Source: Daphnia pulex (taxonomy: Eukaryota > Arthropoda > Branchiopoda > Diplostraca > Daphniidae). Taken from it: a stretch of 64,000 nt of DNA. The stretch lies in NCBI RefSeq assembly GCF_021134715.1, contig NC_060017.1, positions 5,828,001 through 5,892,000 of the forward strand, written 5' to 3'. Position numbers and translations under genes: made by a program. The notes under the pieces are model-generated. The model saw only the letters and a list, made by a program, of their open reading frames with translations. It had not been told where the DNA came from and made no database searches. Positions 4,122 through 48,800 of the stretch are shown in pieces. How positions within the stretch are numbered: position 1 is the first letter of the stretch; each line of letters begins with the position of its first letter.

Positions 4122-8547
<4,426 letters not shown>

Positions 8548-13735: not shown

Positions 13736-14185
13736 ATTACAGTAAAAGTTAAAACGCTTAAAGAGGCTGCAGTATGAATGAAGCCTTATGTCTAATAATG
13801 CTTTAAAGTATAATAATTACTTTAGTAAAATTTATAGGATTTTTTCAAAATAGAAAGTTGTCCGTTGTTTACAGTCTTTACCGCCATCTAGGAGCGCAAT
13901 ACAACATTGCGACAAACGAGACAAACACACAAAAATGGCCGACAGTTGAATTTTTTTTTTCATCAATGATCAATGAAAATTTTTGTTCAAATCTCAGTAA
14001 AAACTGTTAAACTACACTCGAGTTAGAGTGAAGGAGGTGCATAAAATATTTTTCGTAGTAACAACGTGAAACTTTTTCATGTAAGTTGAGTGTGAAAATT
14101 TTAAGTGACAAATTCATACATGTTCAATTGTTTTGTTTTTTTTTGTTGTTGTTATCACTAGATTTTCTAGTTGGCAAACGAAGAA
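13736..14185. other. Asx upstream region / 5'UTR
   Basis: AT-rich. A polypyrimidine stretch and TTTTCTAG acceptor end at 14170, just before the Asx start exon, so an upstream non-coding exon probably ends at a donor left of it (for example TTCATGTAAGTT near 14080). No other gene is supported on the plus strand. Confidence 0.45.
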
Positions 14186-21701: not shown

Positions 21702-21816
21702 ATGGCAACAGAAACTAGTGGAACAACTATAGGAAAAGGCCGATTTGTCGTACGTAGCTACGGGGCTGCAACTACCACCAATGTCCCGACCAATCAAACA
21801 GAACAAGACGATCCAG
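21702..21816 (+). other. kcc: kcc alternative first coding exon A (with RF-x-V motif)
   Basis: 115 nt from ATG ([20 protein letters not shown]) to a GTTAGT donor; length is 1 mod 3, fitting exon 2. R14-F15-V16-V17 matches the [RK]-F-x-[VI] docking motif bound by SPAK/OSR1-type kinases; human KCC3a has a comparable VRFMV near its start. The rest is Thr/Asn/Gln-rich and ends acidic (TEQDDP). Initiation context is GTGAAATGG. It splices over about 25 kb to 47041. Confidence 0.8.
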
Positions 21817-24800
21817 GTTAGTGCACATATTTTTGGTTCATCACGTCGTGTTATTTCGTCCGTTTCGCTCCTTGTTGGTGTGTTCCTTTGTTGTGAGTGG
21901 ATTGCAAGGTGTTTGGTCATTCGATCACCAGATGGACTGGAAAGATTCCGGTTTTTTCCAACATAATTTTTCGATCGAATCTAGTATATTTAATCGTTTC
22001 ATATCTCGTAATTGTGTTGTGCTTCACTTTCGTTGCGAGTAAGTGAAACTTGAGGTCAATTAACTCACCCGAGTAGTTGTTAGTCCTCTAATTCCGTATG
22101 AAACAATAAGCCCTAGTTGCAGCAACTTGGCAATTTCCGGTAACATTTTCCCACTGTAAGCGTTTACGTTTGTCATTATTGCTGGAACGAGTCCATATCC
22201 CATCCCTTGAGAGAAGAAGAAATGTTTTTCCACCGAAATTATCTTTGCCACAGTTGTTGCTACCTTGGCTAATGACTGTTGAATTTGGCAGCTTCCGCTT
22301 GCAAAAGAGAAGAAGAAGAAAAAGCGATGAAAGCAAAAGTAAAAAAAGAAAGAAAGTTGGTTCGTTTCTAGTCTCGTACTTTTCATTTCGGTTGAAGGAA
22401 ATCAATTCGGATCAAGGTATACAGCATGATCCGTAGTAATCCAATTTTCCCAGGCAAATTTAATCACGTTTTTTCCCCCCTCCATTCAGTCGAAGCTTTT
22501 CTGTTCGAAATAGAAATTATATACGACTATCATAAAGATTACTTTATATGAGCCTGGGACGCTGTTGCCACCTGTCAGGCTCACAGGGCTGGAGCGGTGA
22601 AAACTGAAGCAACAAAAAGAGGATGAAAGACAGGCAGCAAAGAAAAGCGAAAAAGAGTCTAGAGAGAAAAAGGAAGAAGAAAGAAAGGCGTCGTACGTGT
22701 AATTCAGGAAACGAGGGAACGTGATGGACGATGTGTCGCACTCACGCTAGATTCACAGGCCAAGATTTTCTCTTCTTTTTTTTTAATTGAGCGATCCTGC
22801 CAACCGAGTCCTCTGAGTTCGTGAAAGCACGTCAACCGTTAAACGCGGAAGCGTTTTTCTTTTTCACCGGTGGAATTCTTGCGAATTCATGTGCTTTGAG
22901 TTTATTTATACATCAATCGGATGGGTAAACTCGATGGATAAACTTTAACTGCTTTTCACTGAAGCTCCCCCCCCCCTCTTTTTTTTGCATCCATCATTGA
23001 TCACGTGTTAAACTTTTGATCTTCTTCAGCTTATAAGCAAAATTGTATTTTTGTTTTCTTTACTTCCCATCTTAAAAGTATATTTCTGGGCCATATTTTC
23101 TTCTTTTCTTTTCAACTTTTCACTCGCCACCCTGGAGACCTGTGCTGGACGTTGCTATCAAACATTTTGGCACATTCGGCATGAACCTTTTTCGCTCGAC
23201 GCCATTGTTGCCGTGCAAAGAAGAACGAAGATGAATAGGCCCTCAAAGTTGGTTGTCAGCCAACGCATCGTGTGCGGTGTATGTGTGTTAATGTTTCACT
23301 GGAGAATTCTTGTTTTTTTCAGCGAGGCTTTTTGCGAGTTACTCGCATCTATTTTAATGCCATTTCACGTCCTATATAGTAGAGTAGTTTCTCCTCTATA
23401 TAGTCAACAGTGTTTTTCAAAAATTCAAACTCTTGGAAAGTTTGTCGCTCAGTTGATCTAAATTTACTTCCCTTTCTGAATTGGGAAGATGAGTAAAAAG
23501 TTGTTCTCATTTGTATCTGAGAAAAGTTTTCACCAGTGCGTGTGAAATTAATTTTAGCCAATGGGTGTCTGTCGTGTGGGAGGGTTGGGCTTTTCTTTGA
23601 CAAGAGAAAAGCAAAGAGAGAGAGAGAGAGTGCGGATTGAATGGAGAGAATCAAAGCTGTTCGAGGAACCCTGACTTCGACGTTATTGGTCTACTTCATT
23701 TTCATTTTTCCGCCATCCAGCTCTTGATTTTCCTTTCAAAAATTTCGCTCTCTCTCTCGCTCTCGCTGCGGGTATATGCACAATCTACGCGATGCACACA
23801 AGAGATCCTTGTGCTACTGTTAAAACAGCACGCTCCGAATAAACGAGTCGAGTCGTGTGTGTGTATGAGGAAAAGGAACGAGTGTGTGTGTGTGTATGGA
23901 TCAATAATCAGGGAGCGACCGAAAGGTTTTGTGTCGTCGTCGTCGTCGTCGACTCTGCGGGCTCGTCCTGACAAGGTGCTGACGGAGAAACTCTAATGGA
24001 TGTGTCACGAAGCTATCCCGGGGCTCGGTGAACTGCAAATTCGTCGCCAGACGGGAGAATCAGTCAGACAGGCAGACAGAGAGAGGCAAGCATCAATAGG
24101 AACGCTGGAACGGAGAGGGGGATTGAACTGACAGCAATCCGCGCGCAGCTCTCTTCCGCTTCGCCTCGTATACACGGCCCGCCGTATGTGCAGGTCCTTC
24201 GATATGAAATGAAGGGGGGACCACCTCCTCCGGGCCATGTATAAATCAATTATCGTCATGACGGATATATCAATAATGCGATTTTTTGTGCGGATGATCT
24301 CGGGGGCCGGCCGGCTGGGCTGGCTGCACAGCGACAGAGTCAGGGCGGATGGCAGATCGTCGTGTCGTTTGCTGACAAAAGTCACTTGGGCAAATATAGA
24401 CGCCGCCACCCTGCGTCTCCTTTTATTTCTTTCCTTTCATATTCGCTGGCTCATGTTTGTATCTTGATCGTCAAAACGTGAAGCTATTGATCCATTTTTG
24501 TTAGCAAAGGAAGATTGGTTGCAGATGGGCCAAGATGATCATTAGTCAGCGGATCTCTCGAAAGCCAAGGGAGTGGGGAGAGGGGAACAGAGCACAGATA
24601 TTGTACGGATGCAATAAAAGCTAATGAAGACGACAACTTCATATCGATCCGCTCAAGCGTGACGGGAGAAAATTCTTTTCATTTGTCGTCAATAGTTTTT
24701 TTTTATTATTCTCTCGTCTCGTACATACAAACGTTGGCAACTGCTCTTTAAACATTAGCAGCAGTCGGGACCTCTTTTCTTTCACTTCCCCGATCTCTTT

Positions 24801-27800
24801 CCTCCTGTTGTTTTATTTAAACTACCTCCCTCCCTTTCGAGCTCTTTTTTTTTCAATTGCAAATAATGTTGATGTTTGTGCTGCACTCTGGCACTGGAGA
24901 AGGAACCTCCCCCCCCATCTCAATGCTCTTCTTCTTTTTTCTGCTGACTGCGACGACAAGGAGCTGCTTCTACCGTGGTGCATCTACTTAAAAAAGACCC
25001 GATGGAAACATCGGAATGCTTTTTACACGTTCCTGTCAGGACCCGCCCTTGCGGAAGCGTTCCAAAGTTGACTAACCTTTTGCTAGGAGAAAATTTAAAC
25101 AGTCTCGAAAGAGAGCTGGAGATTTTCAAATCCGTTTTATTTATTTTTTTTTTCTTCTTCTTCCTTCTTCTCTCCCTGGTTATTGTGCGTGGGGGAAAAA
25201 GGAGGTGCAGTGCTCCTGTAGTCGAATTTCCATTCACAATGTTGCCTACACATCCGACAAAGCCTGTTCAGTACATAGACGTGCAGATTGGCTGTCTAAG
25301 CGATCTGTCATCCAGCTGACAGAGCTCTATGTGTAGGTAATCACTTTGATGAAAGCAGAGAGCACATATTGAGTAAGAAGTTACCGCGGGGAAAAAGGGG
25401 GGAGGGGAGTTAGTTGCCAGTGTCTAATAACAGGGACTATATCAACGATGTGGTTTCAATCAACTTGTTTGTCAAGCACGTCGTCTGTTTTCTTTCTTTT
25501 TTTTTTCTTTTTCCTTTTCCCGATCGATCATATTTTACGCCTATGCAGGTCTTCTGCATTGATAACGTAACTACTATACCTCGTTATGTCACCGCTGAAT
25601 AGTTTCGTTCAGCCATTACAATTTCTCTTCTGCCTTTTTGCCGGTAGTCGTTTATTTTTTTGGGGGGGGCTCGTCGAATCGAATGTCGACCGCAATCAGC
25701 CGAACGTTACACGTACGTGCGAAATTTGATTGCTTCGCTGATTTCCTTTTGACGCGATTTTCAGGCCCCGTGTGTTTTCACCTCAACTGCCGAGACGGAA
25801 TGCGGATGGATATTTTTCCTGGATCACTTTTTTTTTCTTTCCTTTTCGACGGACGTGACGAATGTTAATAATGAACGCAAAGAAAATGGAGTCAACACGG
25901 ACCGTCCAACGTAGCTATGGTCGGTTGCTGGGCAGCCTATCAAAAAAGGGGGGAAGAAACGTACCACTTTCCCTTGACTGTGCACACTTGTATTTCTTCT
26001 AAATGGATTGAGAATGGTAAAACAAAACCATACAAAAAAAAACATTAAATAGTAACAACTTTATAGTTCTACCCGAAAGAAGGAAAGAGATCTAAAAATC
26101 TTTAGAGTTAGAATCGTAAGTAGTAAGCGACATGCCGTTGTAGCGTTGCGCCATCACCCCCCAAAGAAAAAACATGTTTAGCTTTGGTGCTCTTTCGCTT
26201 CCGGATTTCGCCACTGCTGGATTCTGTGGGTAGTAGTCCCGGAGATGAGTGCTCGAGCCTGATTCCGGCCAAACACAAAATGTTACAGGAAATGGCGCAG
26301 CGGTTTATTTTCCATCCAACTTTCTTTTTTTCTCTTTCTCTCCCAACATTAAAAGGAAAGGATTTTGACGGACCTTGTTGGGTGCCGGCCCTGATTTTAT
26401 GCATTCCCCAACAAAAGCCCAAAAGTACCTATGAGCTCTTTGCAACTCTTTTGGGTAAAAGAAGTGGGGCTCCAGTCCTTATGTTGTCAGAAGAAAGCTA
26501 TCAAGGGCTGTAGTACTACTACATTAGTGTGTGTGTGGATGTGTTAGTGTTGGTAGCATCCCTTGAAAGCATGTCGAAAAGCAAATCCACTTTTGACTGC
26601 ATAACCGGTCCGTCGGCGGGAGTGGCGCGGTGCTGGGCCCTGTGGTGCCGCTGCCTATGTGTGTGTAATGTCAAAGGCTAGCCAAAAACGTCCTCCCTTA
26701 TGTCTTGGCTATTCAATCTTTCACAAGATCTTCTTGTTCTTCCTTGATTCTTCGCGATGTACACGCAAGAGTACTCTTTGAGTTCCCCCCCTAGCTTTTC
26801 TCCAGTGTCATCCGAGTCCCTCCCTCCTCTTTTTATTGTATGCAGATCCAATCCAGGCACGCTTTGGGGCCAGTGGGCATGTGCTGCGGGCTTGAACGTA
26901 ATCGTCCGTGTCAAAGAAGGAGGGGATTGACTAGTATTTTTTTTCTTCTTCTTTATTTCTTTTTTCTTTTTCCTTTCATTCTTTTTTTCATCTTCATCCC
27001 GATTTGGCATTTTGGAAAGAATCAGATGACGAGCGAGTGACTCTGTTTCTTCATGCCGCATTGATTTCCATCCCCCGTCATTTCTCGTTGTCAAGTCGAC
27101 AATAATGGAATTGTCATTAATTCTTTTGTTGGTCGGCGTGCGGAAAGAAGAAGAAGAAGAAGAGGACGACAGTTGACTTGGCTCGCAATCAAAAGAAATC
27201 GCAACCCGACCGCCTCACCAGCGGCAGAATAATTTTTTTTTTCTTCCAACGTGCATACTGTTCTGACAGTCAGTCTCTCCCCGCAACAGCCACAACGACA
27301 CTTTTTAGTTCGTTCAAGCCATGCATACTCAACCGCACAATGAGGACATTGAACTCCTTATTTTGATTTCTGCAGCTCCTTGGCCATGGGTTGTTGTTAA
27401 GAGTAGGGAATCTCGGTGACGTCACAAACAAATCATCGAGTCCGGATTTCTTGTGTGTTTTGTGCGTATAGACTACGTGATGTGTAGAGTTGTTTTTCTT
27501 TTTCCATCTCTATGGAGAAAGGTGGATGGGTTTTCGGGGGTTCCGGGAGCTAGAGTCTCACGTGATGGAGGCCATTAAAGGTCAATCACGATTCCGCTCC
27601 TGAACATACCTCGGGAACTAATCACTCAAGTAGGGAAAAAGAACTCGTATAGGCCCAAAGAAAAACTGACGATGTAACGTGTATATATAGCCGCAATCAC
27701 TCAATGACTGCCGGCTGTTTGCCGTACTATACACACACAAGAAAAAAAAGAGAGTCTATAGTGTAGGCGGAGCGGGATAAATCATTTTTTTAGACTGATG

Positions 27801-30800
27801 CTTTTTAATCCCCAGGTTTATAATTTATTTCGCATTTACGTGCTCTTCTTTTTTCCTTTTGACTTTGCCCTTTTTTCGTTTCTGGTTACTTGGTTAGCTA
27901 GCTAGCTAGAGCTCCCTTTTCTTGTTGTTTATTGCATTTGCAGTCGTGTCGAGGGGCTACTTCCTCCACCCTCTCGTGATTGCTTTTATTTGCTTTTTGG
28001 GTTTGTTTTGTGTCTATGTGTGTGTGTGTGTGCATTATATGTTGCCGGTTACTGTTGTGGCTGATGGCCTTTCCCCTCCTTTCCCTCCTTTTCCTTTTTT
28101 TCTGCTCAAAGTTTCGGTCGAGAATTGCGGAACAGGCGCAACTGTTCGTGTCCTCGGCGACCACGACGTGGGGCAGTTGTCAGGCATCCGCCGAGCTGAG
28201 CCGGTCTCAAGTCGAAAAATTCGTCAAGGAATTTCTTTTATTTTTTTTCTTTGGTTTTTATTTTATTTTTCCGTTCGTTTCCTCGTCGGACAAAAAATAA
28301 AGTGAACGAAAAGAAAAAATCTTAAACCATATCGAGGCCTTGTTGTTGGTGTTGTTGTTGTTCCCCCCAAAACCTCCCAAAAGGTTTTTGCGATTTGTTT
28401 TTCGGTGCCGCTGCACATTTGGATTGTGGGATTTCACGAAAATCGCCTAGCTGTCGATCGCCTCCGATATTTATTGGCTGTTCGCGGAACCCGGAACGGG
28501 CGGAAGACGCCAGCGGCACACAAAATGGACGTGGACAGCTACTCGTCTTTCGGTAGGCTACACACATCCTCTACTACCACCACCACCAACACGTTACGCA
28601 GCGTATATATAGAGAAAGAGTCTAGACTATTATTATTGTTATACCTAAGCTGGTTTCTTTCAAATTGGTTTCGCTTCTCTGCATCGATGGCTTCACTATT
28701 TTTTTTCCATTAACCTGCTGTATCTATTTCTTTTCGCCTTTTCCAGCACACGTATTATAGCCCGGTAAAAGGGATGGCATTTGAAATCACAAAATAGTTT
28801 AGCCTCTCTCTCTACATCGGCGTACAATTTAACGGTTACGCAATGTCACGCAATGTCAGATTTCTCTTCTCCATTTCATTTGGCTTATCTTGTCTCTCTC
28901 TCCCTTCCAAGTTTTTGTCGGTACTCTTCTTTTTCTCCTTTCCTTCACCAGGCACGTAGAAATATTCGGATAAAAAGGATGGGCGGTACTACGTGTCAAT
29001 ATCCGTTTGCACAAAGTTTTGAAAGGTATACAGTCTGCAGTTTTTTCTCCCGGGTTCTACTATGTTTGGTCGGGGCAGCATACATCCCCACCCTGGATGG
29101 ATATATGGACGGATGGCTGACTGGCCAGCCGAATGAGAGTGGACAGTTCAAGTGCTTCTCCGTCTCCTGTAGCAACTTAGTCACGGCTCCAGTCGCCTGC
29201 TCCGTATAGGGGGTCGTTGTTATGAAGTCTAATATTTCTAGAGTTATACATGTTTTGCCCGAAAACGTCACCTATTTTTCCTAAGGTTTCTATCCCCCCT
29301 TTTGGAGAGAAAAAATGAAAAACTGGGATTCCATCAGAGGCTATTGTGCCGCATAACTGCACGAAGAGTTTCTAGAACTGGACTGGACTGGTCAGCCAAT
29401 GCAAAAGGCGGAAGAGCACAGTCGCACTTGCACTAGTGGCGCTAGTGATGACTTTTGGGTGGGCGAGAGAAGGGGAAAAAAAAAAAGAGACAGTCCAGGG
29501 AGAGGGAGACGTGAGGGGGAGAGAAGAAGAAGAAGAAAAAAATCCCGATCCGTGACACGTTAGTGTCGCGTATCCGCTATTGGCTTTTCGTTTGGGTTAT
29601 ACCGGTAGTAGCCGGTCGATGTCGTTGCATTAGTGAAGCAGCCTCATAGCCTTTAGTTGACCACCAGCCGAGCTCCGGTCGATAGGTGGTGGTGGCGGCT
29701 GACGTGACTGTGTATAATTATACAGCCCCCAAGTTTGTTTTTTTCCCCGGCTAGTATCTAACCTAAACTAAAAATCAACTTATTTTTTTTTTTTGTTTCG
29801 GAAGGGTTGAAAGCGAATTTCGAATTGGGTTTGAGAAGTTGCCAAAGTTTTGGCGAGTGTGGGGTTGAAGAACAAGTTTTGAAGGCGGGACAAAGTGCGT
29901 GGAGGTGCTGTGTGATCCTTGCCGATCTCGGCAGCCGAGACGACAACCGCAAGAGCAAACGAGAACTTGGGTAACAAAGTTGAACGATTACGCCAGTTGC
30001 CGGGGTTGAGTGGCCAGGCAGCCGAAATGGACTCGGCGGATGAGAACAGATTGGCAGCGGCCCTCGAGCACGGCACCACCGTCTTGCACGCCAACGCTTC
30101 GACCATGACCAACAGCGACTCTTGTCATGACTGGACAGGTGATTTCCAGCATTATTCTAGACCTAATGCTCTCCCCACCAAATATCGATTTCATTATTTC
30201 CGGCATTGTGTACTACATATACGTGGTCTTAGCTTTTATGTCAAAGAAAACAGCCGAGTTTGGAAATGATTGTTGAATCGAAAATTCCATCCTATTTCTT
30301 TTTATTTTTTTATTTTCTCTCTGGGCTCCTTCTTATATTTTCACATCTGCCCACCGATTGGACGAATATTTGACTGCGTCAAGTTACGACCCCCAGTAGG
30401 TCACGAAAATTCGCTATGGCCCCTAATCTTGAAATCGCATGTTGTTACCGCAAAGTCAAAGTTTCTGGTTTTGTGTATTATTTATATGTTACTATATCTG
30501 GGACTAGAACGCAGTCTTCTTCTATTTTGATTATAATCGACTTGGAAATAAAAAAGCCAGCCAGAAAACATGTGCGTACGGTTTATAGAGTATGTACAAC
30601 ACAGTACACCAAAGAAAAGTTGTTATCATATCGCTGGCTCTGGCTACTCGTTATTTTCTAAATGAAGAAAATAACAAAACAACTGCTGGGTTTATTTTCG
30701 TCCAGTTATATTCGTGCAGTTTGGCTGTTGTTTTCAATGTTTCCGCATTTTTCACGTGTAGTCTCCAATTCCAAAAAAAGAAATGTGAAAATATTTCCCC

Positions 30801-33800
30801 TATTCCGGGAGAATATTTACATATATCGAAACGGCTGGATGGCAATCGGCAACAGCACACGTCTTATTTTATTTTATTTTCCCAAAAGGTCCAAAACCTA
30901 TAAATTGAATATCGGCGAATGCAAGCCAACTCTCTCTCTCTCTCTCCTTGATGAAAACTCGTGTCGAATGGAATGGATCGGCAAAGCCCCCGGCACCATT
31001 AATTTCGAGAATGGTCTATAACCTCTTAACGTTTTGGAAGGGATCTAAAAGTTTGCATACTCTGCACTTTCTCGTTTTTCTTTATTATTATCCCGATCCT
31101 GAAAATGTCAGATGACTGGGAAAACTTTTTTTCAAGGCTTGACTGGAGTCGCTCCGAAAACTCAAAGCCAGCCGAGTTAGTTTAAATTTCTGATTTTTTA
31201 AAGAGGCACAAAGTCAAAAACAAGTTGTTCCTGCTGCTCCTGCTGTTTGATATCGATCGTTTGGTCTAAGGGACTATCCTCCTCCTTGTATACATACCAC
31301 CCAAAAAAACAAGCGAAGTTCCACACTACCTGCTAATTAATTAGCTAATATCTTTTTCTTTTTGTTGTTGTGACGAACTTGAGCAAACTCCTTGATAGGG
31401 AAATTCCTGCCCGTACACGATGACTTGCCACTACAATAAGCCAAGACGAAGCGCGGTCGGTATGCAAATTCTTACGAAATGCCCGGGGGGGGGGGGAGTA
31501 TAGAATAGACCCAACCCAAGCCAATTAGGCCAAGCTGTGATGGAAGTGGGAAATCTGATGATTTTCACGCAAACGTTTTTTTTTTTTTTGTTTGCTGAAG
31601 ACCGTCGCTCCCTTTTCCAGGAGGTTTTAGTGCTATAAACGTGGCGAATAACAAACGATGGCGGTAGCCAATCAGGTTGTCGGTGACGTTAGCACGCGAG
31701 CAGTTCCTGCCCCAAATTGTTATTTGTTGGTCGACAGGCTTTTTTCAGTCAGGCCTCCTTACTTTGACGTGCTGGAACTATCAACTCTGATACCCACCAG
31801 CAACTAAGTCGGGGGTGGGGGAATAACATTAAATCACAAGGTGTGCAAACAAATGACATTTTTTTTATGTTTAATTTTATTATTATCTATTTGGCCCATT
31901 CGAACGTAAAGTCCAAAAAACGAATTACGTGGGACGACGCACCATGGCCGTGTGTGCTGTTTGTGTTGGTTTGTTTGTTGATAAATTTCCGCCCGTCAAG
32001 AAGAGTGACACAGCAGAAGCCTTAGTGTTTGAATGATGTCTAACAGAAACGGAGGTTGGGTTTAGAACTATCAAACACTGGTCTTAGTTTTGAGCGACTG
32101 TTGAATGCCTTTTGTAATATAATGAAGTCATCTTCATTACTAATTCAAGGGGGGAACGAGTAGAAACTCTCTCCACTTTGTCGAATTCATCGTTTTGTCT
32201 GTGTGTGTCGTCTGCCTCTTATTTCTTCTTTTGTTTCTCGTTTTTTTTTTGCGCCGGCACTGGAAAGTTAAGCTGGCTCGGAATTTCTTATAACTTGCCT
32301 CTCCTCATTTTAAAGTTGGAAAATAAATAAGTGAAGCGTGAAAAAAAAAAAAAGAAAAAGAACTTTGAGAAACAATTTGATCGTTCGTATTGATCAAATT
32401 TTTTCTCGTTTCCAACTTAAAATAAAAAAAAATCTGCCGTTCCACTATTTATAGCTAGTCAGATCTCTGTCCTTTGTTAATAGTAGGAAAGAACCGAGAT
32501 TTGTGGTTTGATAAGCTAATTCTCTTTTACGTAACCTGTTTTCTAACCCGCGGGCGGAGGTGTAGGATTGTTCCTGTAGCCAAAATGGCTGTGAAATGAA
32601 AGAAACCCGTTTCCAGCGTTAAATCAAGTAGCTTTTTTGATTGCAGAAGGACATTCTGATTCAGAAGCCTTCAAATGAATTGCCTCTCTAAAAGCGCTTT
32701 GATAGTATATATGGACACACCTTGTGAGTACGTGCGTACCTACATGGCGTGGGAGGTTAGAGATACACGTCGAGATGAAGCGAAAGTTGTAAAATCAGTC
32801 GGATCTCGACATCCGCTGCGACTGGGACAATTTGTAGCGGAAGAAAAGAAAAGAAAAAGCATTAAAACAAATTGGCATCTGAACAGTTAATGATGCCGTC
32901 CTCCAGAGACGTTGATCATGACGATTATCAGCTCGTTACTTCGCCGGAAACCCGCAAGAAATTTGGAAAACGTGAGTTCAAAAAAAACAACCCAATCCAA
33001 ACGTTTGTCAACGATACTAGGACACTGGTAGTACCAATGTAGTGTTTTGTTTTATGTTTGCTTCTAAATTGGGGCCGTCCTTTTCCGTTCACAAACAGAA
33101 AAGGACTTGGGAAAAATCAACCAATTACCCACGAAATCTCATTGCCTAGTATCAATAAGAGCGGAATGTTTCTGTCGCTTAACTTGATTTTCTCCTCTAC
33201 TCGTGACTTTGAAAGGCTGGTGGGCGGGTGAGTGCTGGGCACTTGAGTCAATTTGTTTGAATAATTCATGACCTGGTGGTTTCCTCTCTGTTGCTTCTGT
33301 GACTGTCCAATTGGCCGCCCCAAAAGGCAAGAGGTATAAGGTCGATTCCGTCATGACCCAATTTGTTTCACTTTTCCAACTCGACCGTTTCATTTGTTTA
33401 TGAACAAGGAGCCCCCCGAGTCTACGCGAGTCGACTTTATTTAAACCGGACCCTCTATCCAGGTTACGCGTTTGATGGTCAAGCCATTGCCACCGAATGT
33501 GTTTGGTAGAGGGGATCTCTCAGCAGTTTTATTATAGCCGGTAGGCGGAGTAGCAGTAGTAGTATTTGGCTTGTTATTTTTCCTTCCTTTTTTTACAGTT
33601 GGGTACTTGCCACTGGGTGTGTTTGTCTTTTGTATTTCCTTCTCCAATGCTCTCTCTGCTTTTCTCGGTGCAGAGAAGAAACGGTGACAGAACCCCAGAG
33701 AAGAGAGAGAGGAGAAATAAAAAGGAACAAACGAGATCGGTGCCCAGCAGAGAGTGAAATGCTGTACTACTCCCTTTCCATTTCTTTTTCGCTCTTCTTC

Positions 33801-36800
33801 TTTATTTATTTGATGTTTTCTTCTTTTACTTCGTCCTATCGACTTTTCTTTTAACCAAAGGTGTTGGACGCTAGTGCAAAGATATACCGCAAACGACGGT
33901 GGGCGGGGAAAAAAATGTCGGGAGCATTTGGTCATTGATCTGATTTGTAAAGCAAAAAGGTGGATTTCTTCCACCCACGCACGATCCTGACCAGTTCAAT
34001 TTTCTTGTTTTTTTCCTCAGCTGGATGAGTGGGAGACTTTCTCATTTGGCGAGTTTGATAACTGTCGGTTGTCTTTTACAGAGTGTAGTAGCAGCAGACG
34101 GTCTAATAAGTGGCGAACAGAGTCGCTGCTGTCGTTGCGACCCAAAGTTTCATTGGCTCCGCCTGACTGCACACATTGGGTTTACAAGAAACGGGTGACG
34201 AGTGTGTGTAGAGAGAGAAGTAGGAAAGTGTGTATAGTTGATTGGAACACATCACTTCTCTCTCTCTCTTTCATCTTCCGGCATTTTCTTTTTGGTGTTT
34301 CTCCCATCTTTTGCTCCCGGTTTTTCTTTTTTATTTTTATTGATGAAAAATCCTTTTCCTATTACGTGTCGTTCCGTATCATCGACATGCTCTAGTGGCT
34401 TTATATAATATCATTTTCTGACGGGGATTTCTGATTGCCTTGGCGCGACTGCAATGTGTACAGGCTCCCCCCTTTTTCTCTTCTTCTTCTTCCAGTACGG
34501 AGCTCCTCCCGATGTACGAATCGACCGGGGCACACACACACAGCACCACCCCGTGAGTGTGTATGTGTCTGTTTGGTGAACTTGTCGGGTCTCTCTCTCC
34601 GACTCTTTCCTCTCGAATGAGCCCCTTATTCGGCCTATACAGCTCAGGACTACAAGTCCTCCAGAAGACTAACGAATGGAGACTGTCGCCGACTCGATCA
34701 GCAGAAAAGTCACGCAGCTTTCAAAAAGACAGAAAACACAAGAGACACTGTGTCAGGAAACTACCCCCCCCCCCCACTTTTTTTTCTTTCTCTGTTTCAA
34801 GCGAACAAAAAAATTTATATTTTTTTGTTTGGTTTTGTTTCATTTTTTCACCACCCACCGGCGCTCCATTGGCGTTTGACTCATCGTGCATGTAGTCACG
34901 GCGTCGTCGTCGTCTTCTCCATTATCTTGTCACCCGTTTTTCTTTTGATGTCGGATTTGAACTGCCGCGTATATGGGCGATATATCCGAAGGGGGGACTG
35001 CCGACAGGTTCGCCTAGGAGACGACATTCTTTTCTCAACACGAATTTATGTTATTCGAAAATATTAATTCTTCTTTTTTAAATCTTTTATTGTTGTTTTT
35101 TTCTTTTGAAAAAGAATTTGAGAGATTCATCCCAGGCTTTTCTTGCCTGTCGAGTCGTGTGTTATCTCTGGCATTGCGCTTATCCGCCCCGAGATGATGA
35201 CATCGATATATCGACCGATGTCGTCCTCCCGATATATAATAGCTCCCGGTCTTCTTCTTTCTTCTTCTCCTTTTTCCCTCCTCTACGTGAGGTGGAGCGT
35301 TGGGCGCATCGGCAAATAACATATGATACGCCATCGTCTTGTACCAGTACCACCACCACCACTAGTGGGGGTGGGTGGTTGACGTGCCGAAATGGCGACT
35401 CTCCCCCCTCTATGACCCACGTCTATATCCACACAAGGCTGAGTAGGTACACGTCACATCATCCGATGGATCGATTGAAGCTATACACATACGTTACACA
35501 CATGCTGTGCTTACACACACACTGTGTGTGTGTCTCTCTCTCTCTATCTCTGTGTGTACAGTATGTGTCCAAAAAGGTGGAACGGGTTTTCAGCTTCGAG
35601 AGTTTTTCATGTCGCCTTTAGATTGGACCTTTGAGTCGGGGTCACGCCGTTCCTTTTTTTTTATTATTATTTTCGCCATTGTGGCAAATGGTTGAAAGTT
35701 GTGCACAGTCAAAGAGCGAGCAAGATAATGGGGAGGACCGAAAAAAAATAAAAAGAAGATAAAAAATAAACCCCCAAAAAGAGCAAACGAGAAAACAATC
35801 GATCAAGAATCCCCGCCCTCATCTGCCGATGTCAAATCAAAAAAAGAATAGGGAAAGGGGATTTTTTGATGAGGACGAATTCTTTTTTCGTGAGGAGAGA
35901 GCTCCTGGCTCCTGGGCGGCAGCTGAGAATTCTGCCCATTTTCAAGTGTTGATTAGAAAATTAAGAAAGGCGATGACAAGAGGCAAAAGAATACACACAC
36001 ACACACAGAGAGACAAGTGAGAGAAGAAGAAGAGAATGGGGGGAAATGAATTGTTCATCCTCGTTTTTTCTCTTCTCTTCTCCTCCTTTTTCTACTAGAC
36101 GCTAGGAGCCGGCCAAAAGAGGGCCGTCCTTTTTGAAGGAGGTGGCGCTCACTGTAACGGAGGAGAGAGAAGTAGGAGCAGGAGCAGTAGAGTCTCGTAT
36201 TTTTGAGGAGCGAGGAGGAGGCGACTCTCTGGTGGGAGGTGGTGGATGTGTGTGTGTGGGTGGGGTGGGGTTTGGTTGGTAGTTTTCAGGAGGTCGATAA
36301 AGGCGAGGCAGCCGAAGCTGAAGGAAGAGAGTGCGTCGAGAGAGAGCGAACGGCACAGACACAACTCGTCAACAGTTCCTCCTCCTCCTTCTCCTCTCTG
36401 AGCCCCCACATACGACCCGACTGGACAGCGCCAAATTTTTTCACTCGTGTCGTCCAGACTCCTTTTTGGCCGCTGCCCGTTGTCAGTTCCGTTTGCTCGT
36501 CCTCCGCTCTTCCGCGCGCTCACACACACAGACTCTCAATTCGGCCTTTTTTTTCTCTTCTCCTTTTGTCGGTCGAATTTCTTGACTTGTCCCGTCGACT
36601 TGAGTTGACTCCCATCGCTCCTGACATAGAGAAGAGACTAGACAGGGGAATCCAGGAGCCGTTAGATTCCGAAAAAAAGGAGCCCATTGCTCTGGTTGGC
36701 CGTCGGCTGAATGATCAGTGTCATCGGCCGTTTTGACAACTTGCGAGCATAAATATCGATCGGGAGCGAAAGGGAGGAGGAGGAGGAAGAAGAAGAAGAA

Positions 36801-39800
36801 CCGCGTGAGGTACGTGGCCCAGGAGCTGGTGGCTAACAAACACACACACTCCCTCCCCCTCACGAAAAAGGGGTGGAGGGGGGAAGCAGCAAAAAGAAAG
36901 AAAAAGGGAGGGGTGAAAAAAGCAGCAGCAGCACAGCTCTCTTGCTTTCGTGTGCGTGTGTGTGTGTGCGGATGTGTCTGTGAGTGTGTCGAGTGTGCAT
37001 GTGGCTCTGTGTCTCTCCGGTGTGTGTGTGTGTGAGTGAGCCGGGGTCAGAGATTTGTGCTTGGCGCTTAAACTCGGCTCTCCCCCACCAGTGTTGGCCC
37101 ATCTTCGCCGGACTGATGTGCTCCTGCTGCCATCCGTGCGACTCGTCCAGCGCAGTGTCAGTCGCTTTCGCCGGCGCCCAGGCGATTGTTTTGTATTGAA
37201 ACTTTACTCACGCCAATCCTTTTATTTTCGGCCGACGATTCAACTTGTACTTGACAAGGAGCTGGGCAGTTTGTGACGGTTTCTCTCTTTTTTCCGATTG
37301 CCTGGGGATCCTTGACGGTGGGAAATCCACTTTGGCAGAGAGCAGAAATCCAATCAATAGAAAAGAGATTGTCTGTTTGTTTATCTATCCATCAGATAGA
37401 AGGGGGTGAAGAATCCCAGTTTGTTTTTTTGTTACGACTAGAGAAGAGGGTGTTAACATATTTTTAAAAAAGAAAAGAAAAGAAAAAAACGAATAATGGC
37501 CGCGCCGGCAGATCGTTCACGCTTCACCACTGAGAAAGTTGACATCGATCACGATTGCCAGGCCATCGCCGCCAATTCTCAGGGTCTCATTGGTAAGTCT
37601 TCCATATTCCTTGTTTTCTTTTTCTTCGTGTGTGTATTTCCCGTCCGTCATTTTTCGCATATCCTTTTTTTTATTATTATTATTGTACGGCTACACACAC
37701 ACATATGCTGCCGAGGCTGACGGAAGAGAAGCAAAACGGGTGGTGGGGGATAAGTTTGTTATCGTAGGAGGCCTCCTCTTTTTGACTGTACCGCACCCAA
37801 GGCGAAAAAAAAAAGGATTGGCGACTTGCTTTTTTGGATGGAAACCTCTTCTAGGACCTCGGCAAATGTCTTTTCTCTCTCTCTCTTTCTCCTAATCCTG
37901 GGGAGCATTCCCTCCGGGTGCGGAGGATCCGTCATTGCCGCCATTCGCGCATTGATTCGACGGGAAATGTTTCCACGGCATTTTTTTTCTTTTTTGGGCG
38001 ACTCTCGTTCGCCCAACCGGCCGACCTGCTCCTAGCTCCTTTTGAGATGGAATTGAATAGGATCTATTGACAGGATTTTCTCCATTTTTATTTCTTTTCT
38101 CTAATGGCTGAAAGGGTGGGTGGGTGCACCCGAGTCTATATGTTGTATGCAGAGACATCTCCGGTTTCAATGCGAATAGACACTAACACCGGCGGGGTGG
38201 GGTAAAGATGGGTACACACAACTCTGAGGTTATTTGACTAGGAACAACCAAATGAAATGAATATACATCGTACAAGTGTTGGCAGAAGACATGTATAGCT
38301 CTTCTGCTGTAGGGCTGCCCGAAACCCCTCCATTCAAATTCTCGTGAAAAGACCAGCGCCAGCCAAAGAGAAAAAACTGAAAATAAAATAAAATAAAATA
38401 AAATAAAAAAAAAAGATGGTCCTGCGCTGTTATTGTGTGCGCTGCAGGGCACCGCCGAGTATTACAGAGCACATAAACAGAGCAAACGAAATCCCATACG
38501 ACACACAGAAACCATCCAGTATTTTATTATTAGTTTTTCTTTTGCCATCATTTCCCGTCTCTATATCTCTACTCAGTATTTGAATTTCATCTTCTTATTT
38601 TGGGGTATATTGAATTTGATTACGCACAACTCTTTGACATGTGGAAAAATTGAACAAACAAAAAAATATAACCATCCCGGTTCTATGTGGATAATGCGCC
38701 AAAGTCCAGGAGAGATTCTTTCCTTTTTTTTTATTCAAGACAAGTCGAAACGCTAAAGCTCAGACATGTCCTCTGCAATGAAGACTTTTCGGAGAGGGGC
38801 GAAGTCTTACGAGTTATGTAGTATTTGTCTCTCTTGTCTCTACCCCTTGTTGTTGTTGAGAGGGTTAGCGTTAGACTCAATCAACCTTAATATTTCCATG
38901 GGAATTGCTTTGTGTCGTGACAAAGGCGGAGAACAATGGCTCAAAATGGCCGTTCAAAATGTAATAGATCGCATCGCAAATGGAATGGAAAAAAGGAGGA
39001 CCAAGAAGAAGAAGAAGAAAAGACAATTGTTCCCTCCTTTATTATTTCTCAGTCACACACACGACCACAACACACACACACGTATGTACTACCTAGGCAG
39101 AGACATCGAGTCATTATTTCTTTTCTTTTTTTTTTTACTGGGAACTGAATGGGCTGCACGTAGTAGTAGTAGGCGAATGCCACCGGTGGCACTAAAAATA
39201 TATGGCGAAGAAGCCGAGAGAGAAAAAAGGGAAAAGAGCCGACGAGATCGATCGATCTTTTTTTCTTTCTTCTCTTTTCTGATCCGTGAGATGCGCCTTA
39301 TTCGTTATATGATGATCCCCAACCTCTCTCGGGCCTCTTTTCTCCGTGTAACTGGGCGGTATGTACGTAGTAGTGGTAGGCTCCATATAGCTCAAGTGAC
39401 GCGGACAAAGCTATATACGGTCAGTTATCCTTGTCGACTTTATCAGCCTGCCGGGCCCCATCCTGAATTATGTCCAGATCTACGCTGTCTATTTGCGGTA
39501 GGACCGAGATCGTCTCTTTTTTGTTTTTTTAAATCGAAAAAAAAAGATTCATTTTGTTCTGTTCGGCAATATGGATTACATGGGCACACGTGCAAGGCTG
39601 CAGAGCAGCAGCAGCTGTAAGGTCCGTTGTTGAATAAGTAAAAATGTTTGCCGCAATGTTTCAATGATCCATCGGATTCACCATGGTAATTCCTCCTCTC
39701 TTTTTCTTCTTCTTCTTTTTGAAAACACAAAACAAAAAATTCGCCAACCTCCGAATCGCTGGTCTGGAACAATCGAATCGAGAATTGAGTATTGTATAAA

Positions 39801-42800: not shown

Positions 42801-45800
42801 ATTACTGTCCGACGACGACGCCATTTGTAATCGAAGGTGATGTTTGGCGGTGCCGCCTGGTTATTGGTGGTGGATGGTTGGAGAGATAAACATCATTTAG
42901 TGACGTGAGCGCATTGAGAAGCCGGCGGTGCGGAACGAGCAACTCGATATTCATTAAAGGATATATATTTGCTGCTGCTGCTGCTTGCTCTTGTTTAGAT
43001 GATGACGGACAAAGCGGCAGCAGCGGCGGCCCAGTGGCGTAGTAGTAGTAGACACTAATTGAATTCATGCCCAGTGAATAAACGACTCGCATTTATGATG
43101 TTGCAACTTTGAAGGGCGTACGGAATGCCACTCTCTCTGTGTGTGTCTCTCTCTCTTTACCGTAATGCCTTCCGCCAAAGAGATGGATAGTGCGTTATTA
43201 TTTTCTCTCTCTCCTTCTCTCGTTATTATGATGTGACTTGACTGCCTTCATCTCTCCATCCATCAGACTCGCATTTCCTCCTGCCCCCGTCCGTCCGAGA
43301 CAATAATCCAAGAGCCACCATGTCTGTTTACAGTGTCTTGCAGCACAACCATGTTTAAAAGGGGGTCAAGGAAGAAGAAGAAGAAGGAGGTATATAGTCT
43401 TTTGTCTCCTCAACCGGAATAAGAGCCCGTCCCTGCCCCTTTGCTGGACGGACCCAGGAGACCCGAGCACCGAATACTGGCGACTGTCGATCCGTAAAAA
43501 GACATCTAGGCGAATTCAGTGAAACTGTCGATATTTCGCTGGCAAGTCGAGTCGCAATGGAATGTCGTCGATGTAGGCCTAATGGAATGATCCCATTTTC
43601 AGATGATGAAATTGCTCCGGCCTACCAACTAAATAAAGAGCCCCGAGAACAGTAAAAAAGAAAAGAAAAAATAATGTTAAGTCGAATTGAATTCTTTTGA
43701 TAATCAAACTCAGAGAGGCTTCTCGTCAAAGACCGGTGGCGTATTTCACCGACTTATTTCACGTAGGAGCCAGAGGATCCTCTTCAAACCAGCAAAGTCC
43801 CTTGTACACACACACACACACAAGGCTGTAGGCTATAGGCTGCAAGGGTGTGTGTATCCGGGTGGGATTTCTTTGAAACGGGAAACGAGAGTTGACTTTG
43901 AGAGTTACTTTTTTTTTTATTTTTTTATTTTCTTGCTGGCCACCTATTCAAACACGGGACAAATTGATTCGAGCCCCTCCCGCGGTTATTTCCGTTCCAC
44001 TATCTCCGGCGGCTCATCTTTATACAGCCCTGTTAGACCAAATGGTCATGGGAAATCAATAGTACATAGCTTTATTTTCGCTCCGGTCGCTTGGGGAGGG
44101 TCTCTCTCTCTCTGATCTGATTTGGAGGTGTACTCGCACTGATAGGGGGCCCTGGCAGAGAGAGACAAGACCCCGAAAAATGTCGCCGATTCAATCAGTT
44201 AAACTTTGTGCAATCAAAATAAAATCTCATAGCTGAAACACGATATTGGATGGCGCGCGCGGGGGTTTATTTGAAATCGGCGCCCACTTCTTTTTTTTTT
44301 TCTCTTTTTTTGTGTGTGTTGTCTCTACAGCTAGACATGTATATAGCTCCTGGCGATCGATCTACCGTTTTCGTCTTGTCAGTTTGGATGTTCCCCGCAA
44401 TCTCTTTTGCTTTTTATTCCTTACACTATAATATATCTGTTTCAAGGAAATCGTGAGAAAGAAAAAGCGCAGATGACAAGAGTCTTCTCCTTCTCTGTTT
44501 CGGGGGTTTCCTTTTTGATATACTCTTGTCATCTCTGACTCGCTAACTACACGCCCTGTCGAGCTGGAATTGTCAACGTCACGACAGTTTTCCCGGCGGA
44601 AGAACGTAACCGCCGCGGAGTAAAGAGGGAAAAAGAAAAAGTCTGGGAGGAAAAACTTGTTCCTCTCGTGGTCCTGCCGCTGCTGGGTGCTCTGGTGTTT
44701 GTGCAAGTGTCAACATCAGATGACTCCGTGTAACGAGGAAGAATGTAACGAGATTGTCGGTCGGGTGTCCCTTAACGAATCGACTCGTTGACATTTTCCC
44801 TCCCGCCCGCAGAGAAAAAGTCAAACTCGTTTCGGAATTTCTTTTTGGTTGGGGAGCACAGCAAGCCCAGTCGGTGTAGTGTCGACGAGACGTCATTTAT
44901 CTTTTTTTCGGGCTGCTCCATCTCTTTGAGCTTATAAATGTCTAGACGAGGGAGAATAACAAACAAATCCAAATAAAAATAAAAAAACTTTTGTTGTTGA
45001 TTGACTCCCGTTTTCTGATCAACACGCATTTTTATTGTTTTGTTTTGTTTTTTCCCGTTCGGCTCTTGATCTTTCTCTCCCGATTTCACGGAGGAGGAGG
45101 AGGAGGAGGACGGGAGCGATCAATAATAAGGTCCCGAAACTATCTAAGACTGCCATCGCCCTGAAAAATAAAAATGATTCGTCTGGAAGGCTAGGGGCTT
45201 TTTGATTCGGCATTTATTGAAAACCAAATTCTCTGTGCTTCTGCATCCATATCTAATGATGCTTGGGGGGAGTTATGTGAATGAGATCTCTCTCTCTCTC
45301 TTTCCCTTTGTTCTGTGTTGACGTTCGCCTTTGTGCGTTCGCTCCCGGAAACAGACTCGTCGGCAACTTTTATGTTTTTTTTTTGTTTTCTTATGATTTT
45401 TGTTTGCTCCTTTTTCCCCGGTTAACGACCGGTTAGACCCATCTAATCTATATATCTCTCTCCCTCCTCTACTACTGCTATCCTATATAATAGTCCGTCT
45501 ACAGTTGCTGTATCCATGTCGGGAGTCCGCCTCCCATTTCTGCCAATCTCTGCTCTTTAGTCTTTGGCCTCCCGATTATGCCGATAAGATTTTCTTTGTT
45601 GATCGATTGATTCCCCCTTCGGCATTGAATAACCCGACCCGGATTCTTTACGAGCCATCAGATGAAAGACTATTGCAATTCGCTGGATGTTCGCCAACAT
45701 CCGAATTGTTTTCTTTTTCTTGATTTTCCCTTGAATTCCTTATCCTTCAAAAAGTATCAATTGATTGCACGGCTGATTAGCCCTAGCTGGCAGCTCTTTA

Positions 45801-48800
45801 AAAAAATAATAAAAAAGAGTCCTGTAATTGGCTATTAGTATCTTACCGTTACTTCATAGGGGGGGGGGGGGAATAAGGAAGTTTACATCCGGCAGGCTGT
45901 TGGATGTTTAAACCCGGGGCGAATCCGGGTGGGACTTTTGACAAGTTACAGATGACGTAAACACAGATTACCATAATCCTATATGCACACTGGATGGAGA
46001 CGGCCATATAATGCCAGCGACGGGTATAATAATAACAAGGTTACACATTTCACGGAGGCGTTTTTCCATTCGAGTTTAGAGAGAAAAACATGTGAAGGGA
46101 TTCCCGGCTCCATAGCAGTGCAGCTACGGAGCCATTTTTCTCCTGGGCAACTCTTACGGGGACCAGCAAACCAATTGGCGGATTTAAAAAAATAAAATAC
46201 AAAAATGGGTAGAACAAACAAAAACGAAAAAGAGGCCAGGAAAGTGCCAAAATGATGGATGACTGTAATGCACGTCAGCTGCTGGTGCCGCTGTGTGAAA
46301 CAGTGGAGCGGTGGGTGATGGAAAACAAAACAGAAGAAAAGATTTTCTTTTTCTTGCACGTTGCGCAAAAGGTATTCGGGCGAATTAAGAGAAAGAAAAA
46401 ACCGAAAAAAACTAAACCCACGCTAAGGATAATAGAGCCCAATCTTGCAGTGGAGAGAGAAGATGTTCACAGATGTGTTTTGATCTGGTATCTGATGATC
46501 GCCTTATTGCCTCCTGCTGGCCATCTTGCAGCGCTAGTTATTTGCACGCCAACGTTACTTGGTTTTTACGATGTTCGTTGTCTGGTTCGACTTATTGCCT
46601 GGCCAATTCCAACCCTTGTTCCGTTGAGATGAGAAACAAGATATCGCAGTCTAGTGCAATCTCCGGGAAATCAATTCGGACTCGTTTACTTATTTGTTTT
46701 TTCTCCTTCTTTGGGGCGGGTGGAGTGAGCTGATGACAAAATTCCGGGCAACTCGGACAAATCCGGTGTGTATACGTTGCCTTTTATGCGCGCTGATGAC
46801 TCTTTATTAAATTCGTTGCCGGCGGCGGTTGTCTCCGAAATGATGACCGTGCAATTTAGTGGAGGAATTCTGGCCAAAGGAAAGGAAAATGAGTGGAGCG
46901 TGGAATGTTTCATATATGTAGCGTCCAGTTGCACACAACTGCACACAGATTGGCCACTGAATCTAAATGCCTTATTTTTTTATTATTTTTTCTCCTTTTC
47001 CTTCCGGTCCATCGCTGCTTTTTCGCTTGGACATCCACAGGGGACGGCCATGAGGAACAGCCCTTTGTCACTGACAAGAAGGAGAATGACCTGAGCGGCT
47101 ACGAGCGCAATCTCTACCTCTATCATGTAAGTAAAACCATCAATTTTCTCGACTATTTTTCGCTATCCATTCGATTCGAATGGGGGTTATCGGTTCTGTC
47201 GACTGTTCCGCACTAGCGACTATAGCAAATCGGACAATGCATCTAGCGTTCAAAAAAAAAGAAAAGGAAAATGATAGTTGCATCAAGTATAAATAAATAA
47301 AAGGAGAGAGAGGAAAAAGAAATAAGACAAATGGGCCAACGAAATCAATTCGGCCAACAGCTGACAAACGAGTGAGTGGCGAGGAAGCTACTACTACACT
47401 GGCTTTGCCTTAATCTGATTGCATTCTCTCTCTCTCTGGCAAATGTATTTATCTGTCTACTTGTTTTTATTTGTATTCATTTTCTCCCTTTTCTCTTTTC
47501 GTTTTCATCTCGGCTGCCGATGTTTTAGGAGGAGAGCGAGGAAGGCCGCCCGCGAGTGGCTACGCTGGTCAGCTCGCTGGCCAACTACAGTGCCACTGTC
47601 CAGGCGCCAACGGATCCGGATGCGCCCGACAAGGCCAAGAGCTCGCCCAAGCTCGGCACCCTGGCCGGCGTCTATTTCCCGTGCATGCAGAACATTTTCG
47701 GTGTCATCCTCTTCATCCGTCTGACGTGGATCATCGGCACGGCCGGCATCGTCCAGGGATTTTGTCTCGTCACCATGTGCTGCACTTGCGTAAGTGACCC
47801 GCGTTGGCCAAAAAATTTCAATCACAACAAGAGCCTCCCCCTTGCAAACGTGAAATCAATGTTGTACATCGATTTCACTTCATTTGCACCGCGATGGGGG
47901 GTCGGTTATTTTTCCTTTTTTGTGTGTGTGTTATTGTGTCCGGCATGTTTTTTGGAAGCGATCCAATGGAAAGAATCCAAGTCACGAGTCGAACGAGGAG
48001 TCGAAAGAAACATTAGACACAAAAAGGGTTTGGGAGGGGGTTTCGATTGATTTTCTGGGTGGGAGTCGTATTTGAAAACAAATCAGAGTAGAAGCTGAGC
48101 CAAATCAATGTCGAATAAGATGGGAGAGAATACGAGAGTTAAAGATGAAGTCCTCACTTCACGGCTCTCGAAAAAGATCGCGTGGGATCTATTGTGTGTG
48201 TGTGTGTGTGTGTATGGGAGAGAGAAACGAACCTCTTACTCGAATGGGATTTGATGTTTTTCTATTTTTCTCTTTTGCACTTTACTTGTCTCCTTTTCTC
48301 TCCTTTTCCCCTTTTCTCCCCCAATCTCATTCTTCACTCGCCTCCGCTGGATGGGTTTTTTGTTGTGGCTGGTGCCGATCCTGCCTGCTTGCTGGTGGTG
48401 GGTGCCATTCGGATGATGACGACTGGCGCGTTTGTTTTGTTTGCCTCCTCCCGGTTTGTTGGCACCGGCAGACCATGTTGACAGCCATTAGCATGAGTGC
48501 TATAGCAACTAACGGCGTCGTGCCGGCGGGGGGTCCCTATTTCATGATCTCCCGTAATTTGGGTCCCGAATTCGGCGGCGCCATAGGCCTCCTGTTCTAC
48601 ATCGGAACCACTTTTGCCGCTTCGATGTACGTCGTCGGCGGCATCGAAATCCTGGTGGTGAGTAATATATACATAGCCCAAATAATAAAAAAAAGTTGTA
48701 ATCATCCAATTATTTTTCCAACATCTTCTTCTTCTACACTTTTGATTTTGTTTAGAATTACATTGCGCCTCAAATCGCTTTGTTTGGTGATCCGGCCAAG

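What the first reader, a model, noticed from the sequence alone, without database searches (positions are those of the whole stretch)
21702..47126. Five alternative first coding exons feed one K-Cl cotransporter body
Across 25 kb upstream of exon 2 (47041) there are five short ATG-started exons (21702-21816, 28525-28552, 30027-30138, 32890-32971, 37496-37592). Each ends at a usable GT donor and has a length of 1 mod 3, the only phase that joins exon 2 (GG then GAC GGC CAT). Compatible phase in all five has a chance probability of about 1/243 if they were random. Vertebrate KCC2 and KCC3 are known to use two alternative first exons; five in one arthropod gene would be a richer version, giving N-termini of 9 to 38 residues.
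Basis: partly seen in the sequence, partly recalled or inferred. Interest (0 to 1): 0.75.

Follow-up and report, generated by a model that had tools for sequence, protein, structure and literature searches.

The report
Multiple alternative KCC first exons
A salt-transporter gene in what looks like a water flea appears to have at least three, perhaps five, interchangeable beginnings, one of which carries a likely docking site for a regulatory kinase; vertebrates do the same with two beginnings, so this is a richer version of a known arrangement and still needs RNA evidence.

Summary
Each starts with ATG, ends at a GT, has length 1 mod 3, and joins exon 2 (47041) in an open frame through a split codon. 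The body is a K-Cl cotransporter.

A scan that ignored phase is fairer. Its best three of 25 candidates were E3 (30027), E5 (37496) and E1 (21702), scoring 13.3-14.8, the next 7.8; all three have the right phase. E2 (28525) is suggestive. E4 (32890) cannot be told from noise.

Most likely these are alternative first coding exons with their own promoters, as in vertebrate KCC2 and KCC3. E1 alone of the five carries RFVV, fitting the RFx(V/I) motif that docks SPAK/OSR1 kinases; KCC2a is reported to differ from KCC2b in this way. The likely purpose is a choice between kinase-docking and non-docking transporters.

No RNA data or related genome was available: splicing, promoters and conservation are untested. 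The number of exons is unusual; the arrangement is known.

The parts
21702..21816 (+). E1: alternative first coding exon, 38 codons + 1 nt; in-frame TGA 15 nt upstream of the ATG (21687); possible 3' splice acceptor at 21681, so an upstream untranslated exon is possible
21741..21752 (+). RFVV codons in E1, matching the RFx(V/I) SPAK/OSR1 docking motif
   Evidence: sequence; expected number of such motifs in the five peptides 0.049
28525..28552 (+). E2: putative first coding exon, 9 codons + 1 nt, full start context CAAAATGG, weak donor TCG|GTAGGC; suggestive only
30027..30138 (+). E3: alternative first coding exon, 37 codons + 1 nt; top-scoring candidate of the scan; in-frame stop 114 nt upstream with a possible acceptor in between (29935), so an upstream extension is not excluded
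32890..32971 (+). E4: candidate first coding exon, 27 codons + 1 nt, poor start context; not separable from noise, though it shares D[VI]DHD with E5 (5 of 1000 shuffles reach that peptide score, best of 10 pairs compared; the DNA alignment is not unusual, 86 of 1000)
37496..37592 (+). E5: alternative first coding exon, 32 codons + 1 nt; SRFTT is close to but does not match RFx(V/I); in-frame stop 42 nt upstream
47041..47126 (+). Exon 2, the common acceptor exon: completes the split codon (Gly for E1, E2, E3, E5; Arg for E4), then DGHEEQPF...
   Evidence: aligns with the GDG of KCC2 and KCC4 chains of the PDB
47529..54579 (+). Common exons 3-9 (47529-47789, 48472-48657, 48756-48991, 52183-52418, 52523-52684, 52769-52925, 54347-54579): transmembrane domain
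54580..57488 (+). Remaining common exons, C-terminal domain, stop codon TAG at 57486-57488 (exon borders read by eye; a few also found by the scan)

Best explanation
This is the one intact KCC-type SLC12 gene that I found in this genome (by size and contig number a Daphnia; species name recalled). It has a 25-kb 5' region holding several alternative promoters. Each promoter starts a transcript in its own first coding exon (E1, E3 and E5 with good support; E2 plausible; E4 possible). That exon's phase-1 donor splices to the one common acceptor at 47041, completing the split codon, so every transcript encodes the same transporter with a different cytoplasmic N-terminus of 9-38 residues. E1 supplies an RFVV motif that would dock the SPAK/OSR1 homologue (Fray). 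The docked kinase would phosphorylate the conserved C-terminal threonine segments shared by all isoforms and switch that isoform off under WNK signalling; isoforms from E2-E5 would lack this dock. Shown here: anatomy, phase, coding character of three exons, the motif, KCC identity, CCT-type domains in the genome. Inferred: promoters, splicing, tissue-specific use, kinase docking and its effect.
For: 5 of 5 joins are open and in frame. E3, E5 and E1 are the top three of 25 candidates in a phase-blind scan and all are phase 1; 1 of 60 random imitations holds a candidate of 13 or more. Codon scores of E1, E3 and E5 are matched by 0-6 of 5000 intronic controls under four training sets, and per codon (0.19-0.24) lie in the range of the KCC body exons (0.12-0.26). 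In-frame stops lie 15, 27 and 42 nt upstream of the E1, E4 and E5 ATGs, which makes those ATGs the likely starts. The upstream neighbour, a TBC-domain gene, ends about 20.93 kb (by eye), so E1 could open the KCC gene. The join falls in a GDG shared with KCC2 and KCC4 chains. RFx(V/I) is present in E1 and absent from the 518 residues of exons 2-9. Three OSR1_C (CCT) matches over cut-off occur in the genome. C-terminal segments that in KCC2 carry the WNK-SPAK sites align well (that the sites lie in these segments is recalled, site numbers from passages of PMC4301019).
Against: No transcript data and no relative to compare. Core promoter motifs are not enriched upstream: a strict initiator is found for 2 of 5 exons and a TATA-like site for 2 of 5, near background density. 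E2 and E4 lack independent coding support; E1's +1 frame scores nearly as high as its reading frame. One of 60 simulations produced a chance candidate of 15.3, above all three. The score does not distinguish first exons from any ATG-bearing exon: 31 candidates of at least 13 occur in 400 kb of genomic strands, where real genes abound. My acceptor rule (11 of 16 pyrimidines) would itself miss 4 of the 8 body acceptors examined, so 'no acceptor upstream' is weak. A 4-residue motif in five peptides has a chance expectation of 0.05. In flies, kcc knockdown did not modify a Wnk wing phenotype (passage of PMC10593226).
Confidence: 0.75

Rival explanations
1. Only two or three of the exons are real first exons (E1, E3, E5); E2 and E4 are chance ATG-to-GT stretches that the reader picked because they fit the phase.
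For: E4-like candidates occur in 43% of simulations; E2 and E4 codon scores are ordinary to moderate and E4's +2 frame outscores its own; hundreds of phase-1 stretches exist.
Against: E2's full start context plus donor is rare (3.5% of simulations). E4 shares D[VI]DHD with E5 and reaches the top 2.2% of intronic stretches when only ORFs of at least 200 aa train the model.
Confidence: 0.45
2. One first exon is the main one and the others are rarely used or decaying starts with no regulatory role.
For: Alternative starts are often weakly used (general knowledge); promoter signals are weak here.
Against: E1, E3 and E5 all keep coding character and a compatible phase, which unused exons would be expected to lose.
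Confidence: 0.2
3. Some of the 'first' exons are internal exons reached from untranslated or coding exons further upstream, so the number of promoters is smaller than the number of exons.
For: E1 has a plausible acceptor at 21681; E3 has one at 29935 downstream of its upstream in-frame stop. The acceptor rule used would miss 4 of 8 body acceptors.
Against: No AG passing that rule within 150 nt of E2 or E4; those near E5 lie before its in-frame stop.
Confidence: 0.3
4. E1 belongs to a different gene lying between the TBC-domain gene and KCC.
For: E1 lies only about 0.8 kb past the stop of the upstream gene and 25 kb from exon 2.
Against: In-frame stop just upstream, phase compatible with exon 2, no other + strand ATG exon of similar strength in 18-28 kb, and an RFx(V/I) motif suited to this transporter family.
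Confidence: 0.07

Closest known systems
Vertebrate KCC2 (SLC12A5) isoforms KCC2a/KCC2b
   Same: One gene, alternative promoters, different first coding exons joined to a common body; KCC2a's N-terminus holds a putative SPAK/OSR1 interaction site that distinguishes it from KCC2b (passages of PMC6391895; PMC8191313). The KCC2 chains show the same GDG at the place of the join.
   Different: Two first exons there; three to five here. Their use is reported there and only inferred here.
Vertebrate KCC3 (SLC12A6) isoforms KCC3a/KCC3b
   Same: Alternative promoters and first exons 1a (90 aa) and 1b (39 aa) with different tissue expression (passages of PMC9301082).
   Different: Two first exons, one much longer than any here.
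Drosophila kcc (kazachoc)
   Same: Arthropod KCC gene; a 'variant B' transcript is used in the literature (passage of PMC12401179), so transcript variants exist. The WNK-SPAK/Fray-cotransporter axis is described as conserved in flies (passages of PMC10593226).
   Different: I could not read its first-exon structure with these tools; that it has several N-terminal variants is recalled and unchecked.

Membership tests
K-Cl cotransporter (SLC12A4-7) | Sequence of transmembrane and C-terminal domains closer to KCC than to NKCC/NCC | tested here: met
   Body vs KCC3 chain 541.6 bits against 169 bits for SLC12A2 (NKCC1); C-terminal 222 aa matches 16 distinct PDB sequences at E up to 0.001, all named KCC/SLC12A4-7; Pfam AA_permease and SLC12
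K-Cl cotransporter (SLC12A4-7) | Na-independent K-Cl transport | not testable with these tools
   needs expression and flux assay
KCC gene with alternative first coding exons (KCC2a/b, KCC3a/b type) | Two or more ATG-bearing exons with donors in the phase of one common acceptor | tested here: met
   5 of 5 compatible; three with independent coding support
KCC gene with alternative first coding exons (KCC2a/b, KCC3a/b type) | Transcripts joining each first exon to exon 2 | not testable with these tools
   no RNA data among the tools here
KCC gene with alternative first coding exons (KCC2a/b, KCC3a/b type) | Separate promoters | tested here: inconclusive
   initiator and TATA-like matches near background level
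SPAK/OSR1-docking N-terminal isoform (KCC2a type) | RFx(V/I) in one first exon, absent in others | tested here: met
   RFVV in E1 only, by inspection of the five peptides; none in exons 2-9; consensus from passages of PMC7606576 and PMC10593226
SPAK/OSR1-docking N-terminal isoform (KCC2a type) | Binding to a CCT domain | not testable with these tools
   three OSR1_C (CCT) matches exist in the genome; binding untested
SPAK/OSR1-docking N-terminal isoform (KCC2a type) | Conservation in related species | not tested
   no relatives held for this genome (statement)

The most novel reading that the evidence does not exclude
All five exons are real, each under its own promoter, making one arthropod KCC gene do by promoter choice what vertebrates do with four KCC genes (number recalled): tissue-specific transporters that differ mainly in whether, and how, the WNK-SPAK/Fray kinase pathway can grip their N-terminus. 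E4 and E5 may have arisen from one duplicated exon.
Probability: 0.27. Interest if true: 0.55.

Novelty: new member of a known kind. Interest (0 to 1): 0.4.

Why it matters
If confirmed, an animal with one intact KCC gene would obtain regulatory diversity through alternative N-termini instead of gene duplicates, and a kinase-docking isoform made by a separate first exon would be shared by a crustacean and vertebrates, either as an old feature of the family or as a repeated invention. That bears on how freshwater crustaceans tune chloride and volume regulation. It is directly testable with existing kinds of RNA data.

Tried and rejected
Looked for a spliced (processed) gene copy that might record an exon 1-exon 2 join. 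The second KCC match (C10:6879826) is a partial 3' copy that keeps introns (read by eye), so it says nothing on the join. A BLAST comparison of it with the window did not run (wrong file name). A DNA search found 4 of 5 first exons only at their own place; E2, 28 nt, gave no row and is too short to count as tested.

Tested whether the N-terminal peptides align with KCC chains of the PDB. With E5 the alignment reaches into a KCC3 chain's N-terminus, 1.8 bits above the next chain, which I do not count. With E1 it starts at residues 32-53 in the KCC chains; four NCC (SLC12A3) rows align from residue 14 with 1-3 extra bits over the next NKCC/NCC row, also not counted. Pfam finds nothing in the E1 or E5 composites.

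Looked for internal coding exons between E1 and exon 2. The best + strand candidate (34496-34552, score 15.5) has a pyrimidine-rich acceptor and a low codon score, and the frame scored does not fit a phase-1 join; - strand candidates reach 14.2 and 12.8. The scan is weak: among its top 14 in the KCC body it found 3 of my 8 assigned exons with exact borders, so I do not use its silence as evidence. Direct repeats listed for 21-47 kb are low-complexity runs outside the five exons. No Rfam match in the window.

Literature: ten searches, of which only the listed top 6-20 papers each were seen, listed no title on KCC first exons in Daphnia or another crustacean. The D. magna isoform paper PMC11061156 (passages only) says 5713 genes (58.8%) make two or more isoforms; its main text does not hold the words cotransporter, promoter or first exon. 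This is no proof that the isoforms are unannotated; RefSeq gene models were not available to me.

Limits of method: start and donor weight tables were typed from recalled typical animal values, not trained on this species. The coding table was trained on 81 ORFs of at least 130 aa from 20 stretches of 10 kb plus KCC exons (without KCC exons), and its background comes from the same region as the intronic controls. Simulation thresholds for E2 and E4 were set from the exons themselves.
Full report
What is there. The window is 5828001-5892000 of contig C1 of a 133.2-Mb genome in 13 contigs. That size and contig number fit Daphnia pulex, a name I recall and did not test. From 47041 to the stop at 57486-57488 lies a K-Cl cotransporter. 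The assembled 518 residues of exons 2-9 match a KCC3 chain at 541.6 bits and KCC1, KCC4 and KCC2 chains at about 507-529 bits, against 169 bits for SLC12A2/NKCC1. The C-terminal 222 residues match only KCC chains (16 distinct sequences at E up to 0.001). I found no second intact KCC gene: of 20 scored matches in the genome (a lower bound), those outside this locus are 36-50% identical except one 90% partial copy on C10, which keeps introns and looks broken (read by eye).

The five exons. All five claimed exons are exact, end in GT, have length 1 mod 3, and give open joins to exon 2 through a split codon, glycine for E1, E2, E3 and E5 and arginine for E4. The N-termini are [39 protein letters not shown] (E1), [10 protein letters not shown] (E2), [38 protein letters not shown] (E3), [28 protein letters not shown] (E4) and [33 protein letters not shown] (E5), each followed by DGHEEQPF.

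Is it more than chance? I therefore scored every ATG-to-donor stretch in 18-47 kb without regard to phase, by start context, codon use and donor. Of 25 non-overlapping candidates on the + strand, E3, E5 and E1 came first (14.8, 14.3, 13.3), then 7.8 and less; the - strand's best was 10.0 of 11 candidates. All three are phase 1. In 60 third-order Markov imitations one held a candidate of 13 or more; it reached 15.3. In 400 kb of genomic strands, where real exons abound, 31 candidates reach 13, so the score marks coding exons, not first exons as such. Codon scores of E1, E3 and E5 were matched by 0-6 of 5000 stop-free intronic stretches in each of four training sets and per codon lie in the range of the KCC body exons. 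E2 was matched by 622-715 of 5000 and E4 by 111-424 of 5000. Two results lean the other way: E1's +1 frame scores 5.9 against 7.4 for its own, and E4's +2 frame 4.5 against 2.3. E2 has a full CAAAATGG context; in 200 simulations 3.5% hold a candidate as good. E4-like candidates, judged from its second ATG, appear in 43%. E4 and E5 share D[VI]DHD; 5 of 1000 shuffles reach that peptide score, the best of 10 pairs compared, while the DNA alignment is not unusual (86 of 1000), so this is a weak hint of exon duplication. E2's donor fell under the cut-off of the scan, so E2 could not appear in that ranking; E4 was outranked there by an overlapping phase-0 candidate.

Are they first exons? In-frame stops lie 15 (E1), 27 (E4), 42 (E5), 114 (E3) and 222 (E2) nt upstream of the ATG. 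By a rule of at least 11 of 16 pyrimidines and a pyrimidine before AG, no acceptor lies within 150 nt of E2 or E4; those near E5 precede its stop; E1 has one at 21681, just before its stop, so E1 may follow an untranslated exon; E3 has one at 29935. That rule would miss 4 of the 8 body acceptors looked at in the same call, so it excludes little. The upstream gene, with a TBC-type domain, ends about 20.93 kb (sequence, by eye), leaving E1 free to be the head of the KCC gene. Core promoter motifs were near background level, so promoters are inferred from anatomy only. A scan for internal coding exons in 21-47 kb found no clear candidate of matching phase, but it recovered only 3 of 8 assigned body exons with exact borders in its top 14, so its silence means little.

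How it most likely works. Each promoter yields a transcript whose first donor joins the single acceptor at 47041. The join sits in a G-D-G that aligns with KCC2 and KCC4 chains, so it is at an old border between variable N-terminus and common body; that vertebrate introns sit at the same place is recalled. E1 contains RFVV, fitting RFx(V/I), the motif bound by the CCT domain of SPAK/OSR1 (passages of PMC7606576, and PMC10593226). The motif is absent from the other four peptides (inspection) and from exons 2-9; chance expectation for the five peptides together is 0.049. I did not scan the exons between 54.7 and 57.5 kb for it by script. The genome has three OSR1_C (CCT) matches over cut-off, whose genes I did not identify, and C-terminal segments that in KCC2 carry the WNK-SPAK threonines are well conserved (site numbers in passages of PMC4301019; their position in these segments recalled). 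The inference is a gene with kinase-docking (E1) and non-docking (other) isoforms, as described for KCC2a and KCC2b (passages of PMC6391895). E5's SRFTT lacks the V/I and should not count as a dock. A caution: in flies, kcc knockdown did not modify a Wnk wing phenotype (passage of PMC10593226).

What is not shown. No RNA, no relatives (one search states none are held), no binding.

Known or new. Alternative first exons in KCC genes are known (passages of PMC6391895, and PMC9301082). Three to five in one gene is richer, but of the same kind. The lists returned by my ten searches showed no title on this in a crustacean; public gene models may already list these isoforms. I rate it a new member of a known kind, interest 0.4.

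Noticed in passing
window 56721-56732: A possible 12-nt microexon (GAGGTCGGTGAG, flanked by AG and GTAAGT, phase 0 both sides by eye) in the KCC C-terminal tail between 56519 and 56851 (sequence printed).
   Followed up: partly
window 53518-53913 (+): A 132-codon open frame inside the KCC intron 52926-54346, of which 53519-53787 has protein-like codon use; no Pfam match, and that part found only here in the genome.
   Followed up: partly
L010, about 4840 to at least 7500 (C10): Partial copy of the 3' half of the KCC gene, introns kept, with small insertions and an apparent stop in coding parts; a segmental duplicate that looks broken (by eye).
   Followed up: partly
window 14171-18148 (+): A single 1325-codon open frame with ASXH and Asx PHD domains: the Additional sex combs gene.
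   Followed up: partly
window 19553-20928 (+): Small gene with a divergent TBC domain (PDB match 9qzc, E 5.6e-9; no Pfam match); resembles TBC1D31 (name recalled; gene ends read by eye).
   Followed up: partly
window 6724-8382 (+): Exons of the FACT subunit SPT16.
   Followed up: no
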